Assembly: GCA_003023665.1 (NCBI GenBank)
Contig: PXYR01000002.1
Coordinates: 1-40,234 of the forward strand
Direction: 5' to 3'
Source: Bacteroidota bacterium
Lineage (GTDB): Bacteria; Bacteroidota; Bacteroidia; Flavobacteriales; Schleiferiaceae
DNA: 40,234 bases
The notes below the pieces were generated by a model that searched no databases, was not told the origin of the DNA, and was given only the letters and a program-made list of their open reading frames with translations. Positions within the stretch are counted from its first letter, which is position 1. Each line of letters starts with the position of its first letter. Made by a program: the position numbers and the translations under genes. Shown here one piece after another: positions 4,488-10,680 of this stretch.

Positions 4488-5651
4488 TTATTTCCTTGCG
4501 AACTTGTCTACGCAAGATTTACTTATTGGATTTCCGCTCAAAATATGCAAGCGTTCCATTACATTCCGAAATTCGCGGATATTTCCCGTCCAATCGTAAT
4601 CTTGTAATACACTTATCGCATCGTTATCAATTCCTTTTGGACTTACGCCATATTCTTCAGCGATTGATTTTAAGAAGTGGTCTGCGAGCAATGGAACATC
4701 ACCTCTGCGCTCATTTAAACCTGGGACTTTCATAATAATGACGCCTAGACGGTGGAAGAGGTCTTCTCTAAATTTACCTTCTTCAATCATCTTTCTAAGG
4801 TTTTTATTGGTTGCAGCCAAAACACGTACATCAACCTTAATACTCTTGTCACCTCCAACCGGTGTGATTTTGTGTTCTTGCAAGGCACGGAGTACTTTTG
4901 CTTGTGCTCCAAGGCTCATATCACCTATTTCGTCAAGGAATAAAGTTCCTCCATGGGCCAATTCAAATTTCCCTTTGCGGTCTTTCTGGGCGCCTGTGAA
5001 TGCACCTTTTTTATGTCCAAAAAGTTCGCTTTCAATTAATTCTGCAGGTATTGCTGCACAATTAACTTCAATCATAGGGTTCTTTCTTCTTTCGCTTTGC
5101 TCATGAATCTGGTGCGCCACTAATTCTTTACCAGAGCCATTGGGTCCAGTAATAAGGACACGTGCTTCAGAAGGAGCAACCTTGGAAATAATATCTCTAA
5201 GCTCATTCATTCCATCACTTTCCCCAATCATCTTGTACTTTTTGCTCACGCGCTTTTTGAGCGTTTTCACTTCCGTTACCAATTCTTTTTGAGTCAACGC
5301 ATTACGCACTGTACTCAATAATCGATTGAGATCTGGAGGTTTTGGTAGATAATCGTAAGCACCTTTTTTTAAACAATCCACGGCTGTGTTGATATCGCCG
5401 TGACCAGATATCATAATTACAGGAACATCTGCATTGATAGACATCATGTGTTCAAGAACTTCAACACCGTCTTTATGCGGCATTTTTATGTCACAGAAAA
5501 CTAGATCCCAATTCCCTTCACCGAATAATTCAACAGCTGATTTACCGTCTTCCGCTTCGTGGATATCATTATTAGGATCTTCTTCAAGCAAGATCTTTTT
5601 GAGGACTCGACGAATAGCAACTTCATCTTCTATTAGTAATATTCTGCTCAT
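4488..5651 (-). CDS. NtrC-type sigma-54 response regulator lacking a C-terminal HTH
   Basis: A 387-residue two-domain regulator. Residues 1-120 are a receiver domain with acidic pair ED (9-10), phosphoacceptor Asp54 in VFCDIKMPHKDG, and a lysine in YLPKP. Residues about 140-375 are an AAA+ sigma-54 interaction domain with Walker A GPNGSGKE, the sigma-54 contact loop GAFTGA, Walker B GGTLFLDEIGD and the R-finger region FREDLFHRLGV. The protein stops at VDKFARK directly after the AAA+ lid (WTGNIREFRNVMERL), so the usual Fis-type DNA-binding domain (about 45-60 residues) is missing. Only 28 bases separate its stop from the next gene, so no frameshifted remnant exists. It is last in a cluster with natAB-like genes and mscS, 10 bases after mscS. 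No partner histidine kinase is in the window. Confidence 0.95.
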   Translation of the reverse strand: MSRILLIEDEVAIRRVLKKILLEEDPNNDIHEAEDGKSAVELFGEGNWDLVFCDIKMPHKDGVEVLEHMMSINADVPVIMISGHGDINTAVDCLKKGAYDYLPKPPDLNRLLSTVRNALTQKELVTEVKTLKKRVSKKYKMIGESDGMNELRDIISKVAPSEARVLITGPNGSGKELVAHQIHEQSERRKNPMIEVNCAAIPAELIESELFGHKKGAFTGAQKDRKGKFELAHGGTLFLDEIGDMSLGAQAKVLRALQEHKITPVGGDKSIKVDVRVLAATNKNLRKMIEEGKFREDLFHRLGVIIMKVPGLNERRGDVPLLADHFLKSIAEEYGVSPKGIDNDAISVLQDYDWTGNIREFRNVMERLHILSGNPISKSCVDKFARK

Positions 5652-5661
5652 ACTTTATACG

Positions 5662-6594
5662 TTATACAGCACCGTTCTCTTCGTCAGTATTAGGGTGAAT
5701 TTCTCCGGCTCCCACAATTCCGTCGCCAAATTGGGTAATTCTGTCTGGTCCGCGCCAAACTGTACGCTGAGGAAAAGGAATGATAATTTTGTTCGCTCTA
5801 AATTGTTGGTCAATTTCAAATCTTAAATCGCTTTTTATTTTTTCTACAAAAAACAAATCGCGGGTATAGAAATTAAGCTCGAATACAAGGGCACTATCAC
5901 CAAAGTCTTTCAATAATACTAGCGGTTTCTCTTTATCATCAGCTTTGGGGTGCTCTAAAGCAATTTTATAAAGGATGTCTGAAACTTGTGCAGTATCGCT
6001 CCCGAAAGCGACACTTACATTAACGGCAAAACGAGTTGTTTCTTCGCTATGCGTTAAATTAATGACTGTTTCATTAGTCAATTTGGAATTGGGTACAATG
6101 ATTAGAATATCATCCCTTGTTCTGACTGTGGTAGTTCTGAGACCAACTGCTTCTACTTTCCCAATTTGGTTTTCTAATTGAATAATGTCACCTACACTTA
6201 AGGTGCGCTCCATGAGTATGATTACTCCTGCGCTCAAGTCTTTGAATGCATCCTGAAGACCAAGGCCTAAACCCACAAAGAGCGCGGTTGACGCAGCTAA
6301 AAGGGCAGTAACCTTAACGCCAATTGTTTCTAAGGCAATAACAATTACTACGGTATAGATGATGTATTTAGAAATCTGCAGAATAGTGTAGCGTCTTCCT
6401 TCATCATATTGCTCTCCCGCTTTGCTTCGCAAGAAGATTTTTTTCAATAGCCAGAATCCATAGCGTGCGCTTGCAAAAAGCAGCAATACTTGTAAAAGGC
6501 CTTTAACAGAAAGCCTGAAAAAGTCGGTAGACCAAATTCCAAAACTTAAGAATTCTTTAATCCACTCTTGGATATTATTTAATACTTCAACCAT
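5662..6594 (-). CDS. small-conductance mechanosensitive channel (MscS family)
   Basis: A 310-residue membrane protein. Three or so hydrophobic segments lie in residues 1-115, ending in the glycine/alanine-rich pore helix (TALFVGLGLGLQDAFKDLSAG). The beta domain follows with the MscS signature DIIQLENQIGKVEAVGLRTTTVRT and IIVPNSKL, then an alpha/beta C-terminal domain. The family opens under membrane tension to release solutes during osmotic downshock. The length is close to E. coli MscS (286). Its start overlaps the 3' end of the ABC permease by 16 bases, showing tight coupling with the upstream transporter genes. Confidence 0.95.
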   Translation of the reverse strand: MVEVLNNIQEWIKEFLSFGIWSTDFFRLSVKGLLQVLLLFASARYGFWLLKKIFLRSKAGEQYDEGRRYTILQISKYIIYTVVIVIALETIGVKVTALLAASTALFVGLGLGLQDAFKDLSAGVIILMERTLSVGDIIQLENQIGKVEAVGLRTTTVRTRDDILIIVPNSKLTNETVINLTHSEETTRFAVNVSVAFGSDTAQVSDILYKIALEHPKADDKEKPLVLLKDFGDSALVFELNFYTRDLFFVEKIKSDLRFEIDQQFRANKIIIPFPQRTVWRGPDRITQFGDGIVGAGEIHPNTDEENGAV

Positions 6595-7886
6595 TTATAT
6601 AATTCCTTCCAGGTAACTTTTTTTCCGTACATCAATATACCAACTCGATAGATTTTTCCTGCTAATGCCACCACGCCAAAAAATGTGCCTACTAAAATTA
6701 AAGCACTTAAGCCTATTTGCCATATAGGAACACCAAAAGGTAGGCGAATCATCATACTTATTGGTGAAGTCAAGGGAATCATGCTCATCCAGAACGCTAA
6801 GGGTCCATTAGGATCTTGAATTACATTCATTGCCGTGGTGATTGCAATAATCATTGGAGCGGTAACAGGTAACATAAATTGCTGTGAGTCTGCTTCTTGG
6901 TCAATCGCTGAGCCTAGTGCAGCAAAAAGAGCACTGTATAAGAAGTAGCCTCCAAAGAAATAGAATACAAATCCACTTAAAACCACAGGGAAATTGATGC
7001 TATTGAGCATGGAGAACAAGTTTGTTTGATCCACTGTACTTAAATCCGGTGAACCAGGGCCTGCTGGAACTTGCTGCGCAAAAATCTCGGGATAGATAAA
7101 AGTACTGACCACGGCGTAAATTGTGCCCGACAAGATGACCCAAATAAGAAATTGTACCACGCCAACTAATCCAATTCCAAGAATTTTACCCATCATTAAT
7201 TGTCTTGGTCGCACACTAGAGATAATGACCTCTACAATCCGGCTTGTTTTTTCTTCTATTACACCGCGCATTACTTGAACTGCATAGAAAAATATGAAGA
7301 AGTAAATGAGAATACCAGCAATATAACCAAGTCCCATTTTTAGCGGTGTTGCGCTTGTTTCCTCGTTGCCTTCTTCTCCCATAGTAAAGCTCTTAATAGT
7401 CACTTTAGTCTTGGTTTGAGACACTACCTCAGGGTCTACGCCTTGGCGAATGAGCTTTTGCTGATTTATTTTTTCTTCTAACTGACGCTCAACAAATCGC
7501 TGCAGATCAATTCCTATATCTTCTTTTCCAAAAAGAAGAATATTGTTCTTAATAAAATCCGGGTCCCATCCATTCCCAGAAGGGATATATAATAGGGCAT
7601 CTTTATCCGATTCCCTTAAAAATGTTTTCCCTGTTTCCAAGTCAAATTCATTTGGATTCAAGTACTCCAACGAAAATTGTGAAGTACCTTCTTCGGGAAC
7701 CAAAATAGAGGGTTCATCTAAGACAATTATGCTCTTATCATCCTCTGGCATTGATGCGAGTAATCCAGGAACTATCATTACCGCGGCTAGAAGCAGCGGT
7801 GCTAATAAAGTCATCAATAAGAATGTTTTTTTGCGTACGCGTGTGATGAATTCACGCTGAATAATCAGTAGGATGGGGCTTTTCAT
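6579..7886 (-). CDS. ABC-2 type exporter permease (NatB-like)
   Basis: A 435-residue permease of the ABC-2 family. An N-terminal anchor helix (FLLMTLLAPLLLAAVMIVPGLLA) precedes a large extracytoplasmic domain of about 150 residues, then five or six membrane helices. The motif REFITRVRKKTF at the start and VEEKTSRIVEVIISSVRPRQLMMGKI in the middle are typical of NatB/YhaP proteins, which in Bacillus are linked to Na+ export; the substrate here is uncertain. It overlaps its ATPase partner by four bases (ATGA) and mscS by 16, so all are translated from one mRNA. Confidence 0.93.
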   Translation of the reverse strand: MKSPILLIIQREFITRVRKKTFLLMTLLAPLLLAAVMIVPGLLASMPEDDKSIIVLDEPSILVPEEGTSQFSLEYLNPNEFDLETGKTFLRESDKDALLYIPSGNGWDPDFIKNNILLFGKEDIGIDLQRFVERQLEEKINQQKLIRQGVDPEVVSQTKTKVTIKSFTMGEEGNEETSATPLKMGLGYIAGILIYFFIFFYAVQVMRGVIEEKTSRIVEVIISSVRPRQLMMGKILGIGLVGVVQFLIWVILSGTIYAVVSTFIYPEIFAQQVPAGPGSPDLSTVDQTNLFSMLNSINFPVVLSGFVFYFFGGYFLYSALFAALGSAIDQEADSQQFMLPVTAPMIIAITTAMNVIQDPNGPLAFWMSMIPLTSPISMMIRLPFGVPIWQIGLSALILVGTFFGVVALAGKIYRVGILMYGKKVTWKELYKWLKY

Positions 7887-8785
7887 GAGTTCAAAGGTTT
7901 AGGTCCGTTATTCACTATATCAATGAAGATATCACTAACTCGCGGCAATACTTCCTCAAAACCAAGCAACTGATTTTCTTTAGCTAATTTTTGAATTAAT
8001 GCACTTGGATAAGCTTCGCTTTTAATTGTTGCCGTGTGTCCTGTATGTTGTAAGTCTCTATGCAAAACATCCATTCCTGAAAAGGTCTGTTGCTCTTTTG
8101 TCGTAAAGGCGTAAGTACCGTTCATGTAATGCTTTCGAATATCCAATAAAAGGCCTTCTACCATAACCTTACCGTTATTTATTAGACCTATATGGTCACA
8201 TATTTCTTCCACACTTTCCATACGGTGAGTAGAAAAAATAACCGTAGCGCCTTCTTGATTTAACCGTTTTATTTCGTTTTTAATCAAATTCGTATTGATA
8301 GGATCAAAACCAGTAAAAGGTTCGTCAAATATCAACAGGGCTGGCTTGTGAAGAACGGTGGTTACAAACTGTACCTTTTGTGCCATTCCCTTACTCAAGT
8401 CCTCAACCTTCTTTTCCCAAAAGTCTTCCATTTCAAGGCGAACAAACCATTCTTTGGCTCTTGATTTAGCTTCTGAACTACTTAGACCTTTAAGCTTAGC
8501 CAAATACAAAACTTGCTCCCCAACCTTCATTTTCTTATACAGACCACGCTCTTCAGGCAAATAACCTATTCGTCCTATATCTGCAGGCTTCAATGGTTCG
8601 TTGTCAAATAACACTACGCCGCTATCCGGAGCAGTTATTTGATTCATTATTCTGATAAAGGAAGTTTTTCCAGCTCCATTTGGACCAAGTAATCCATAAA
8701 TGCTTCCTGAGGGAATATTTAAGTTGATGTTTGCTAGTGCTACTTTATTACCGTATTGCTTACGGACATCTTTTGCTCTTATCAT
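7883..8785 (-). CDS. ABC transporter ATP-binding protein (NatA-like)
   Basis: A 300-residue ATPase with Walker A GPNGAGKTS near residue 37, Q-loop in LPEERGLYKKM, signature LSKGMAQK, Walker B LLIFDEPFTGFD and the switch histidine in FSTHRME. The C-terminal 80 residues form the extra domain seen in NatA/YhaQ-type ATPases. It powers the permease encoded directly downstream. This is the first gene of the natA-natB-mscS-sigma-54-activator cluster. An inverted repeat (8797-8814) lies 12 bases before the start codon. No standard TAnnTTTG box is visible in the short leader. Confidence 0.95.
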   Translation of the reverse strand: MIRAKDVRKQYGNKVALANINLNIPSGSIYGLLGPNGAGKTSFIRIMNQITAPDSGVVLFDNEPLKPADIGRIGYLPEERGLYKKMKVGEQVLYLAKLKGLSSSEAKSRAKEWFVRLEMEDFWEKKVEDLSKGMAQKVQFVTTVLHKPALLIFDEPFTGFDPINTNLIKNEIKRLNQEGATVIFSTHRMESVEEICDHIGLINNGKVMVEGLLLDIRKHYMNGTYAFTTKEQQTFSGMDVLHRDLQHTGHTATIKSEAYPSALIQKLAKENQLLGFEEVLPRVSDIFIDIVNNGPKPLNS

Positions 8786-8885: not shown

Positions 8886-9995
8886 TTATGAGAACATTTC
8901 TTTGACCCTATCAAAGAATCCTTTATCTGATTTACCAGGATTTGGTTCAAAATTTTTACTTTCTTTTAAACCTTCTAAGGTCTTCTTTTCTTCATTGCTG
9001 AGGTTCTTAGGTACCCAGACGTTGATATGTATCAATTGATCGCCTCGGCCGTATCCTTGAACACTAGGCAAGCCTTTGTTTTTTAAACGAAGAATTTTAC
9101 CGGGCTGTGTTCCTTTGTCAATATTGATTTTAACTGATCCGCTTACTGTGGGAATTTCTACGCTTGTACCCAATGCCGCATCTGGAAAACTAAGGGTTAA
9201 TTCATAGTGCAAATTTTCTCCGTCTCTTGTTAATGAATCGTGAGGTATTTCTTCTATTAAAACTATGAGGTCTCCCGGTATACCGCCCAAAGCTTCATTC
9301 CCTTTACCACCAACGCGCAACTGCATGCCGTCTTGAACCCCACCAGGAATTTTTACTGCAACAACTTCCTCTTTGCGCTCTAGTCCATCAGAACCGACTC
9401 CACTGGGCTTTTGGTCTACAATTTTTCCAGCACCATTACAGGTAGAACATGTAGCTGCGGTTCGCATTTGTCCTAGAATAGTATTGGTGACTTGTTGTAC
9501 TTGACCTGCACCGTTGCAGGTTGGACATGTTTTAAAGGTTACGCCTTCGGCAACCTTCGCCCGACGTATCTTAATTTTCTTTTCGACACCATCGGCAATT
9601 TCCTCAAGTGTTAATTTCACTTTTATTCGGAGGTTAGAGCCTTTTGCTTGACGCTGACGTGCGCCTCCACCGCCAAAACCGCCAAAGCCACCTCCACCGC
9701 CAAAGATGTCTCCGAACATATCAAAGATGTCATTCATATTCCCGTGGAATCCGCCTCCGCCTGCACCGGCACCAAATGCTTGGTGACCAAACTGGTCGTA
9801 CTTGCGTCGTTTTTCCTCGTTGCCCAATATGTCATAGGCTTCAGCAGCCTCTTTGAATCTATCTTCTGCTTCTTTGTCGTCTGGATTCCGGTCCGGATGA
9901 TTTTTTAACGCAACTTTCCGGTACGCCTTTTTAATTTCATCTTGACTAGAGTTTTTATTGACTCCTAGAACATCGTAATAATCGCGCTTCGCCAT
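8886..9995 (-). CDS. dnaJ: co-chaperone DnaJ with a half-lost zinc domain
   Basis: A 369-residue Hsp40 that stimulates DnaK ATPase and delivers unfolded proteins. The J domain (1-70) has HPD at 33-35; a Gly/Phe-rich linker follows (75-112); two beta C-terminal substrate domains and a dimerisation tail complete it. The cysteine-rich region normally has four CxxCxGxG repeats. Only repeat 2 (CPTCNGAG, Cys157/160) and repeat 3 (CSTCNGAG, Cys183/186) are present. Repeat 1 is replaced by RAKVAEGVTFK and repeat 4 by DQKPSGVGSDG. Repeats 2 and 3 make zinc centre II, which is known to be needed for work with DnaK; repeats 1 and 4 make zinc centre I. The reading frame is intact, so this is a family variant, not damage. 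The start lies one base after the grpE stop. Confidence 0.97.
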   Translation of the reverse strand: MAKRDYYDVLGVNKNSSQDEIKKAYRKVALKNHPDRNPDDKEAEDRFKEAAEAYDILGNEEKRRKYDQFGHQAFGAGAGGGGFHGNMNDIFDMFGDIFGGGGGFGGFGGGGARQRQAKGSNLRIKVKLTLEEIADGVEKKIKIRRAKVAEGVTFKTCPTCNGAGQVQQVTNTILGQMRTAATCSTCNGAGKIVDQKPSGVGSDGLERKEEVVAVKIPGGVQDGMQLRVGGKGNEALGGIPGDLIVLIEEIPHDSLTRDGENLHYELTLSFPDAALGTSVEIPTVSGSVKINIDKGTQPGKILRLKNKGLPSVQGYGRGDQLIHINVWVPKNLSNEEKKTLEGLKESKNFEPNPGKSDKGFFDRVKEMFS

Positions 9996-9996
9996 A

Positions 9997-10551
9997 TTAT
10001 GCTTCTTTACCGACTACAACTTTAGCATAACGAATCACTCTATCGCCAATTTTGTATCCTTTTTCAACTTCATCAATTATTTTACCAGCCATCTCAGGGC
10101 TAGGAGCGGGAATTTGAGTAATAGCTTCCATTTCTTCTACGTCAAATTCTCTTCCAACCGTACTTTCCATTGCGCTCAGACCCTTCCCTTTGAGGGTTTC
10201 CATGAGCTTGTGTTGAATGAGCTTGAGTCCTTCTAAAACGGCAGTGTTTTCCTCTGTTTCTTCAGTATTCTTTAATGCTCTTTCAAAATCATCAAGAATT
10301 GGCAGAAGCGCTGTTAAAGTGTCTTCATTAGCACTCTCCATGAGGGCTAATCTTTCTTTAGCTGTTCTACGTCGGAAGTTTTCAAATTCCGCATATAAAC
10401 GCAAATTTTGATCTTTCAAGTCTTTAACCTCATCCTCAAGTTTGACTACCGGATCTTGCTCAACACTAGTTTCCTCGGTAGTTTCAGGGTTTTGATTTCC
10501 GTTTTTTTCTTCCTGTAATTCTTCGTTATTAGAAGCTTCTTTCTCTGACAT
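9997..10551 (-). CDS. grpE: nucleotide exchange factor GrpE
   Basis: A 184-residue protein. Residues 1-60 are acidic and disordered, residues 60-110 form the coiled coil (LRLYAEFENFRRRTAKER, a GrpE hallmark), and the C-terminal beta domain ends in GYKIGDRVIRYAKVVVGK. GrpE releases ADP from DnaK. It is the first gene of the grpE-dnaJ operon; dnaK is not in the window. Upstream are a TAATTTTG box and a perfect inverted repeat that may control heat-shock expression. Confidence 0.97.
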   Translation of the reverse strand: MSEKEASNNEELQEEKNGNQNPETTEETSVEQDPVVKLEDEVKDLKDQNLRLYAEFENFRRRTAKERLALMESANEDTLTALLPILDDFERALKNTEETEENTAVLEGLKLIQHKLMETLKGKGLSAMESTVGREFDVEEMEAITQIPAPSPEMAGKIIDEVEKGYKIGDRVIRYAKVVVGKEA

Positions 10552-10613
10552 TTCTATAGAATTTACGGCTTTATTTGCATCTCTTATTGCAAATTGTTCG
10601 CCATCTAATGTTC

Positions 10614-10632
10614 CGCTGACAACGTGTCAGCG
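10614..10632 (-). promoter_or_regulatory. perfect inverted repeat at the grpE transcription start (candidate operator)
   Basis: The 19-base sequence CGCTGACAACGTGTCAGCG has perfect 8-base arms and a 3-base centre. It begins 5 bases downstream of the -7 box TAATTTTG, so it would cover the transcription start and the first bases of the mRNA. It is unlike CIRCE (TTAGCACTC-N9-GAGTGCTAA). The place suits a repressor site; an mRNA hairpin is the alternative. Confidence 0.55.
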
Positions 10633-10637
10633 AGGCG

Positions 10638-10645
10638 CAAAATTA
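10638..10645 (-). promoter_or_regulatory. candidate -7 promoter box of grpE-dnaJ
   Basis: The minus strand reads TAATTTTG, a full TAnnTTTG match, 86 bases before the grpE ATG. The -33 region is occupied by the tlpA terminator and shows no TTTG. Confidence 0.55.
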
Positions 10646-10650
10646 GACAT

Positions 10651-10680
10651 AAAAAAGGCGTCGGGATTGCGCCAACGCCT
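10651..10680 (-). terminator. intrinsic terminator after the TlpA-like gene
   Basis: On the minus strand AGGCGTTGG pairs with CCGACGCCT (one T-G wobble) around a short loop, followed by six T. It ends the uvrD-DUF4290-murA-tlpA transcript, 27 bases after the last stop codon and just before the grpE promoter box. Confidence 0.85.

What the first reader, a model, noticed from the sequence alone, without database searches (positions are those of the whole stretch)
10614..10645. Perfect inverted repeat at the presumed grpE transcription start: candidate heat-shock operator that is not CIRCE
CGCTGACA-N3-TGTCAGCG (8-base perfect arms) begins 5 bases downstream of a TAATTTTG box, so it covers +1 to about +19 of the grpE-dnaJ mRNA. 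The DNA is otherwise not repetitive here and the terminator of the upstream operon is a separate hairpin. The place is where a repressor would block transcription. HrcA/CIRCE has a different sequence. An mRNA hairpin acting on stability or as a thermosensor is the alternative.
Basis: partly seen in the sequence, partly recalled or inferred. Interest (0 to 1): 0.6.

Follow-up and report, generated by a model that had tools for sequence, protein, structure and literature searches.

The report
Activator site of a sigma-54 chaperone promoter

Summary
The repeat CGCTGACA-N3-TGTCAGCG is real (10614-10632). Alone it is not improbable (about 0.8 such repeats expected per window), but it is conserved upstream of grpE in 24 of 24 genomes of the genus. 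A sigma-54 -24/-12 promoter (TGGCGAACAATTTGC, 10603-10589, minus strand) lies 13 bp downstream of the inner element TGACA-N3-TGTCA in 24 of 24, so the repeat is most likely upstream of the transcription start and not in the mRNA.

The module TGNCA-N3-TGNCA / about 12 bp / TGGCA-N7-TTG precedes grpE across Bacteroidota (63 of 64 loci). In an unbiased scan of 60 genomes, 51 of 60 hits lie upstream of grpE, groESL, htpG, clpC, lon or pspA. At dnaK the elements lie further upstream in multiples of 10.5 bp. The same element stands before miaB-EBP2, an operon with a sigma-54 activator linked to groESL; EBP2 is also the only such activator kept in a 345-kb endosymbiont. HrcA is absent from all 60.

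Sigma-54 control of these chaperones was already published; I found no published activator or site. The heat-shock-operator idea is right in spirit, but as an activator site.

The parts
10614..10632 (.). perfect inverted repeat CGCTGACA-N3-TGTCAGCG (the finding)
   Evidence: conserved in 24/24 genus genomes
10617..10629 (-). inner element TGACA-CGT-TGTCA, the phylum-wide conserved part; proposed dimer site of the sigma-54 activator EBP2
10604..10616 (-). 13-bp spacer between element and -24 box (13 in 24/24 genus genomes; 11-13 across Bacteroidota)
10589..10603 (-). sigma-54 promoter TGGCGAACAATTTGC (-24 TGGC at 10603-10600, -12 TTGC at 10592-10589)
   Evidence: GG/GC spacing fits the sigma-54 consensus; rpoN present in own genome and 58/60 relatives
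10575..10578 (-). inferred transcription start, about 12 nt after the -12 element; 5' UTR of about 25 nt
   Evidence: inference from promoter geometry (sequence)
9997..10551 (-). grpE (184 aa)
   Evidence: PF01025, 143.8 bits
8886..9995 (-). dnaJ (369 aa)
7883..8785 (-). ABC transporter ATPase, same direction as grpE-dnaJ
   Evidence: sequence
6579..7886 (-). ABC-2 permease
   Evidence: PF12698
5662..6594 (-). MscS-type mechanosensitive channel
   Evidence: PF00924
4488..5651 (-). EBP1: response-regulator receiver plus sigma-54 AAA+ domain with no DNA-binding domain; one of only two sigma-54 activators found in this genome
10638..10645 (-).
10651..10679 (-). intrinsic terminator of the upstream gene (hairpin 10679-10657, T-run 10656-10651)
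   Evidence: sequence

Best explanation
The repeat is the upstream activator element of a sigma-54 promoter that drives grpE-dnaJ. RNA polymerase with sigma-54 (RpoN) sits at TGGC-N7-TTGC in a closed complex. An AAA+ enhancer-binding protein dimer docks on TGACA-N3-TGTCA, centred near -45 on the helix face that allows contact, and opens the complex. The likely activator is EBP2, the AAA+/Fis-HTH protein encoded in the miaB-EBP2-lptE-(TPR)-secG-groES-groEL cluster. EBP2 also appears to bind at its own sigma-A promoter, probably limiting its own synthesis, and activates groESL, dnaK, clpB/clpC, htpG and lon: a proteostasis regulon. Shown here (sequence and comparative data): conservation, promoter geometry, fixed or helically phased spacing, regulon membership, the site before miaB-EBP2, EBP2 synteny and retention. 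Inferred: binding by EBP2, activation, autorepression, heat inducibility and the signal (possibly free chaperone titration, since EBP2 has no N-terminal sensor domain).
For: Genus: sigma-54 promoter 13 bp from the element in 24/24, TAnnTTTG upstream in only 7/24; arms invariant while the loop varies. Other Bacteroidota grpE loci: of 64 with a -24/-12, 63 carry TGNC.-N3-TGNC. at 11-13 bp (61) or 23 bp (2). Unbiased pattern scan of 60 genomes: 60 hits against 14 for the reversed control; 51 hits upstream of grpE (15), groES (25), htpG (7), clpC (2), lon (1), pspA (1), and 9 others mostly inside open frames. clpB and groES of this same genome carry it. dnaK: sigma-54 promoter with elements at 11-12, 21-23, 31-33, 42, 54, 63-65, 75-76 and 86 bp; phase test at 10.5 bp p = 2e-5 for 10 non-genus sites. 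EBP2: strict TGNCA-N3-TGNCA occurs 22 times in 136.5 kb (2 expected), 12 before miaB-EBP2 and 9 before groES; conserved before miaB in the genus. Only two strong sigma-54 activators in G000, G010 and G017, and EBP1 lacks an HTH. A 345-kb, 23% GC endosymbiont-like genome keeps rpoN, EBP2 as sole GAFTGA activator, and the module at groES and grpE. HrcA absent in 60/60. Independent experiment: mapped sigma-54 start sites for groESL, lon, dnaK, grpE-dnaJ, htpG and clpB in Flavobacterium psychrophilum (PMC9723704).
Against: No binding, expression or start-site data exist for this organism. The centre near -45 is much closer than the usual -80 to -150 of sigma-54 enhancers. The -12 element at groES in this genus is poor (TTTC/TTCC). 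G026 and the reduced genome G051 lack the element upstream of miaB. The genome is 92% complete, so another activator could be missing. F. psychrophilum data show induction on blood agar and other stresses; heat was not the reported inducer. The phasing test used a chosen match threshold and a small number of partly related sites.
Confidence: 0.8

Rival explanations
1. The element is an activator or accessory site of the sigma-54 chaperone promoter, but the protein that binds it is not EBP2 (for example an unlinked regulator, or a co-factor of EBP1).
For: Binding is inferred only. EBP1 lies in the same gene string as grpE and also carries the sigma-54 contact domain. The fixed spacing next to the promoter is unusual for a classical enhancer.
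Against: EBP1 has no DNA-binding domain. The element stands before miaB-EBP2 in 12 of the 14 non-genus lineages examined (13 with that region held), the usual sign of a regulator's own site. EBP2 is the only activator retained in the reduced genome G051.
Confidence: 0.14
2. Repressor operator on a sigma-A promoter: TAATTTTG is the -7 box and the repeat covers +1 to +19. In a mixed form the same bound activator would block this sigma-A promoter while opening the sigma-54 one.
For: A TAnnTTTG box is present at the same place in 7/24 genus genomes including this one. At miaB-EBP2 the element lies near a sigma-A box, so the protein may act as a repressor there.
Against: The box is absent in 17/24 genus genomes with the same repeat. 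No clear -33 TTG is seen upstream of it here (sequence). The sigma-54 promoter is the conserved partner across the phylum.
Confidence: 0.08
3. RNA hairpin in the grpE leader acting on stability or as a thermosensor.
For: Perfect 8-bp stem with a 3-base loop. Outer flanks extend the symmetry in some lineages (sum of extensions 80 versus 22.6 +/- 7.1 in shuffles).
Against: With the conserved sigma-54 promoter the repeat is not transcribed with grpE. Core arms do not vary in step; one genome changes one arm only (G020). The extension is zero in this genome and near zero in a whole sister clade. In other families the two half-sites are often direct repeats (TGACA-N3-TGACA), which cannot pair. No Rfam match above chance.
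Confidence: 0.03
4. CIRCE/HrcA-type control.
For: Position upstream of a chaperone operon; a CIRCE-like repeat does occur before groES in one distant genome, G097.
Against: Different sequence; HrcA found in 0 of 60 relatives while the control genomes ring.
Confidence: 0.01

Closest known systems
Sigma-54 regulon of Flavobacterium psychrophilum, motif SM4 (PMC9723704) and predicted Bacteroidota sigma-54 chaperone genes (PMC12316311)
   Same: Same target genes (groESL, lon, dnaK, grpE-dnaJ, htpG, clpB) and same -24/-12 promoter type; start sites mapped there.
   Different: In the text read there, neither the activator nor its binding site is identified (PMC9723704 notes three PF00158 proteins as candidates). 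The TGNCA-N3-TGNCA element, its spacing and phasing, and the link to the groESL-linked activator are from this work.
PspF / phage shock (sigma-54, pspA)
   Same: An activator with no N-terminal sensor domain, AAA+ then Fis-type HTH, controlling a stress regulon; one module hit lies before a pspA gene (L328).
   Different: EBP2 scores far below the PspF equivalog cut-off (272.6 versus 443.55 bits) and is linked to groESL; its regulon is cytoplasmic chaperones and proteases.
FleQ-type promoter-proximal activation (own knowledge)
   Same: A sigma-54 activator site close to the promoter rather than at -100; FleQ is among the best solved-structure matches of EBP2's AAA+ domain.
   Different: Different regulon and site. 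The dnaK sites lie at more usual distances, on the same helix face.
HrcA/CIRCE and sigma-32 heat-shock control
   Same: Controls the same core chaperone genes.
   Different: Repressor, or different sigma factor. HrcA was sought and is absent; sigma-32 was not separately tested.

Membership tests
sigma-54 promoter | GG and GC dinucleotides 10 nt apart (TGGCA-N7-TTGC) | tested here: met
   TGGCGAACAATTTGC in the window; TGG[CT]-N7-TTGC in 24/24 genus genomes; at grpE across the phylum
sigma-54 promoter | rpoN in the genome | tested here: met
   own genome and 58/60 relatives
sigma-54 promoter | AAA+ activator with GAFTGA loop | tested here: met
sigma-54 promoter | transcription start 12 nt after the -12 element, rpoN-dependent | not testable with these tools
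   5'-end mapping with the sigma-54 motif at grpE of F. psychrophilum (PMC9723704), not for this organism
enhancer-binding-protein site (UAS) | dyad element conserved before the regulon genes | tested here: met
enhancer-binding-protein site (UAS) | helix-phase dependence at variable distance | tested here: met
   dnaK; grpE at 12 or 23 bp; small sample
enhancer-binding-protein site (UAS) | usual location -80 to -150 | tested here: not met
   grpE and groES elements centre near -45; dnaK elements reach the usual range
enhancer-binding-protein site (UAS) | bound by the activator | not testable with these tools
   indirect: the same element stands before miaB-EBP2
PspF family | NCBIfam PspF equivalog score above cut-off | tested here: not met
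   EBP2 272.6 bits against cut-off 443.55
CIRCE/HrcA | hrcA gene present | tested here: not met
   0 of 60
RNA thermometer or leader hairpin | part of the mRNA with pairing preserved by compensatory change | tested here: not met
   upstream of the conserved promoter; core invariant; half-sites often direct repeats elsewhere
sigma-A repressor operator | conserved TAnnTTTG promoter overlapped by the site at grpE | tested here: not met
   7/24

The most novel reading that the evidence does not exclude
EBP2, the sigma-54 activator encoded beside groESL, is the ancestral master proteostasis regulator of the Bacteroidota. It binds TGNCA-N3-TGNCA on one helix face from about -45 outward, controls its own gene, and is the reason why flavobacterial insect endosymbionts keep RpoN.
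Probability: 0.62. Interest if true: 0.75.

Novelty: new variant of a known kind. Interest (0 to 1): 0.6.

Why it matters
How the Bacteroidota, which include major gut and marine bacteria, switch on their chaperones is poorly defined: HrcA is absent from the order studied here. Sigma-54 control was already suspected, but without an activator or a site. This work names candidates for both and makes the whole circuit testable with one gene deletion and one promoter mutation. It also offers an explanation for a noted oddity, the retention of RpoN in tiny endosymbiont genomes, which has been ascribed tentatively to nitrogen metabolism (PMC3971599).

Tried and rejected
Inverted repeat as significant on its own: rejected, about 0.8 expected per window. 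Exact CTGACA-N3-TGTCAG as a genome-wide operator: only one exact copy in the genome; the true element is the degenerate TGNCA-N3-TGNCA tied to the promoter. First regex for -24/-12 with a wrong spacer found nothing useful and was corrected. The outer-arm symmetry was examined as evidence for a hairpin: significant against shuffles but lineage-specific and absent in this genome. The loop reads CGT in some genomes and ACG, its reverse complement, in others, which fits template-switch mutation better than function. Rfam: nothing above chance. Sabree et al. 2009, cited by PMC12316311 for sigma-54 control of grpE, is not held and was not read. Sigma-32 presence was not tested.

Full report
THE OBSERVATION. 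The repeat CGCTGACA-ACG-TGTCAGCG is at 10614-10632. It is upstream of grpE (9997-10551, minus) and dnaJ (8886-9995, minus). By itself it is ordinary: about 0.8 perfect 8-bp repeats with a 3-base loop are expected in the window and 2 are present. It is the only exact CTGACA-N3-TGTCAG in the 1.85-Mb assembly.

CONSERVATION IN THE GENUS. Named relatives with near-identical DnaJ (84-92%) are Schleiferiaceae / Flavobacteriales MAGs. Of 24 genus genomes with the grpE upstream region held, 23 have the exact core and one (G020) has a single change. Arms are invariant and the 3-base loop varies. In contrast TGG[CT]-N7-TTGC, a sigma-54 -24/-12 promoter, follows in 24 of 24 with exactly 13 bp between TGTCA and TGG. 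In the window it is TGGCGAACAATTTGC (10603-10589). The start of transcription should then be near 10576, giving a leader of about 25 nt, and the repeat is upstream of it.

CONSERVATION IN THE PHYLUM. Upstream of grpE in 72 non-genus loci (Flavobacteriales, Cytophagales, Sphingobacteriales, Saprospiraceae and others), 64 have a TGGC[AT]-N6-TTG promoter by a strict pattern, and 63 of these carry TGNC.-N3-TGNC. upstream, at 12 bp (47), 13 (12), 11 (2) or 23 (2). The one without it (L134) ends 16 nt upstream of the promoter. The half-sites may be inverted or direct, because TGNCA is its own reverse complement in form.

UNBIASED REGULON SCAN. The module TGNCA-N3-TGNCA-N11..13-TGGCA was searched in 60 whole Flavobacteriales genomes: 60 hits against 14 for the reversed pattern. 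Identified by downstream gene, or by coordinates known (one groES assignment, G024, rests on sequence likeness only), 51 lie upstream of grpE (15), groES (25), htpG (7), clpC (2), lon (1) or pspA (1); the other 9 are mostly inside open reading frames. In the window's own genome the groES module is TGTCA-GAG-TGGCA-N12-TGGCATAAAATTTCG, and a weaker one precedes clpB.

DNAK AND HELICAL PHASE. dnaK also has a sigma-54 promoter in 21 of 24 genomes read by the strict pattern. Its elements are further away, but the spacers cluster at 11-12, 21-23, 31-33, 42, 54, 63-65, 75-76 and 86 bp. With the grpE spacing of 12 as reference phase and a 10.5-bp period, V = 0.84, p = 2e-5 for 10 non-genus sites and p = 5e-6 for the 13 sites that exclude the 11-12 class. 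Sites are few, partly related, and chosen at a 7-of-8 match, so this is strong support but not proof. A face-of-helix rule at distances up to 86 bp is expected of an activator that touches the polymerase, not of a blocking repressor.

WHICH PROTEIN. RpoN is in this genome and 58 of 60 relatives. This genome has two strong sigma-54 activators. EBP1 (window 4488-5651, minus, same gene string as grpE-dnaJ) has a receiver and an AAA+ domain but no DNA-binding domain. EBP2 (406 aa, contig C5) has AAA+ and a Fis-type HTH and is encoded in miaB-EBP2-lptE-TPR-secG-groES-groEL. G010 (99% complete) and G017 also have just these two. EBP2 lies a few kilobases upstream of groES on the fetched loci, and the core of its recognition region (ISERTLYRK) is invariant in 31 sequences. 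In 136.5 kb around these clusters in 17 non-genus genomes, strict TGNCA-N3-TGNCA occurs 22 times against 2 expected: 12 are 89-148 bp before the miaB match and 9 are 82-131 bp before groES. In the genus a GACA-AAT-TGTCAG element stands before miaB just upstream of a TATCTTTG-type sigma-A box. A regulator's own promoter carrying its site, near a housekeeping promoter and without a sigma-54 promoter, suggests negative autoregulation (inference).

THE REDUCED GENOME. G051, a 345-kb, 22.8% GC Flavobacteriales genome (endosymbiont by its size; unnamed here), keeps rpoN and exactly one GAFTGA activator. It is the EBP2 ortholog (51% identity), still between miaB and groES. Its groES has TGACA-TTA-TGTCA 23 bp before TGGCATATTTTTGGA, its grpE has TGTCA-AAA-TGACA before a TTGCATAAATTTTGC promoter, and lon has TGGCATAACTATTGT. 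PMC3971599 notes RpoN retention in such endosymbionts as unusual and suggests nitrogen assimilation; chaperone control fits better (inference).

WHAT IS KNOWN. PMC9723704 mapped start sites in F. psychrophilum: groESL, lon, dnaK, grpE-dnaJ, htpG and clpB have sigma-54 motif SM4, the first five in one co-expression cluster; it leaves the activator open among three PF00158 proteins, and lists the sigma-54 regulator-lptE gene pair as having its own (SM5) promoter. PMC12316311 predicts enrichment of sigma-54 promoters at these chaperones in Bacteroidota. Neither text mentions the element by the terms searched. Sigma-54 control is therefore prior knowledge; the element, its phasing and the EBP2 assignment appear new within the literature I could search.

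ALTERNATIVES. HrcA/CIRCE: HrcA 0 of 60. mRNA hairpin: not transcribed with grpE under the conserved promoter; half-sites are direct repeats in other lineages; no Rfam match above chance. Repressor on a sigma-A promoter: box not conserved; a mixed role in lineages that have the box is not excluded.

CONFIDENCE. Activator element of a sigma-54 proteostasis promoter: about 0.8. EBP2 as the binder: about 0.65-0.7. Heat as the natural signal: plausible, untested; F. psychrophilum data point to several stresses.

Noticed in passing
window 10598-10650 and genus loci L016-L073: Flanks of the repeat extend the palindrome in some lineages (up to 17-bp arms in G024) with different sequences (sum of extensions 80 versus 22.6 +/- 7.1 in shuffles), and the loop reads CGT in some genomes and ACG, its reverse complement, in others: a likely signature of template-switch mutation in a palindrome.
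   Followed up: partly
window 4488-5651 (minus): EBP1, a response-regulator/sigma-54 AAA+ protein without a DNA-binding domain, lies in the same gene string as grpE-dnaJ and near grpE in many relatives; its kinase and targets are unknown.
   Followed up: partly
G051 (L297-L314): A 345-kb, 23% GC genome keeps rpoN, EBP2 and the element at groES and grpE; this may explain RpoN retention in flavobacterial endosymbionts.
   Followed up: yes
L364, L365, L366, L376, L377, L378 upstream of groES: In several families an element copy is embedded in the secG terminator hairpin (e.g. TGCCAGCCTGTCAAAGCTGGCATTTTTTTT), so the terminator may double as an activator site.
   Followed up: no
L272 (G097), upstream of groES: A distant Bacteroidia genome carries a CIRCE-like TTAGCACTC...GTGCTAA repeat before groES and no obvious sigma-54 module, suggesting a replacement of the control circuit.
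   Followed up: no
L328 (G054:C1:1032154): The module also occurs before a pspA-like gene, linking the regulon to envelope stress in that lineage.
   Followed up: no
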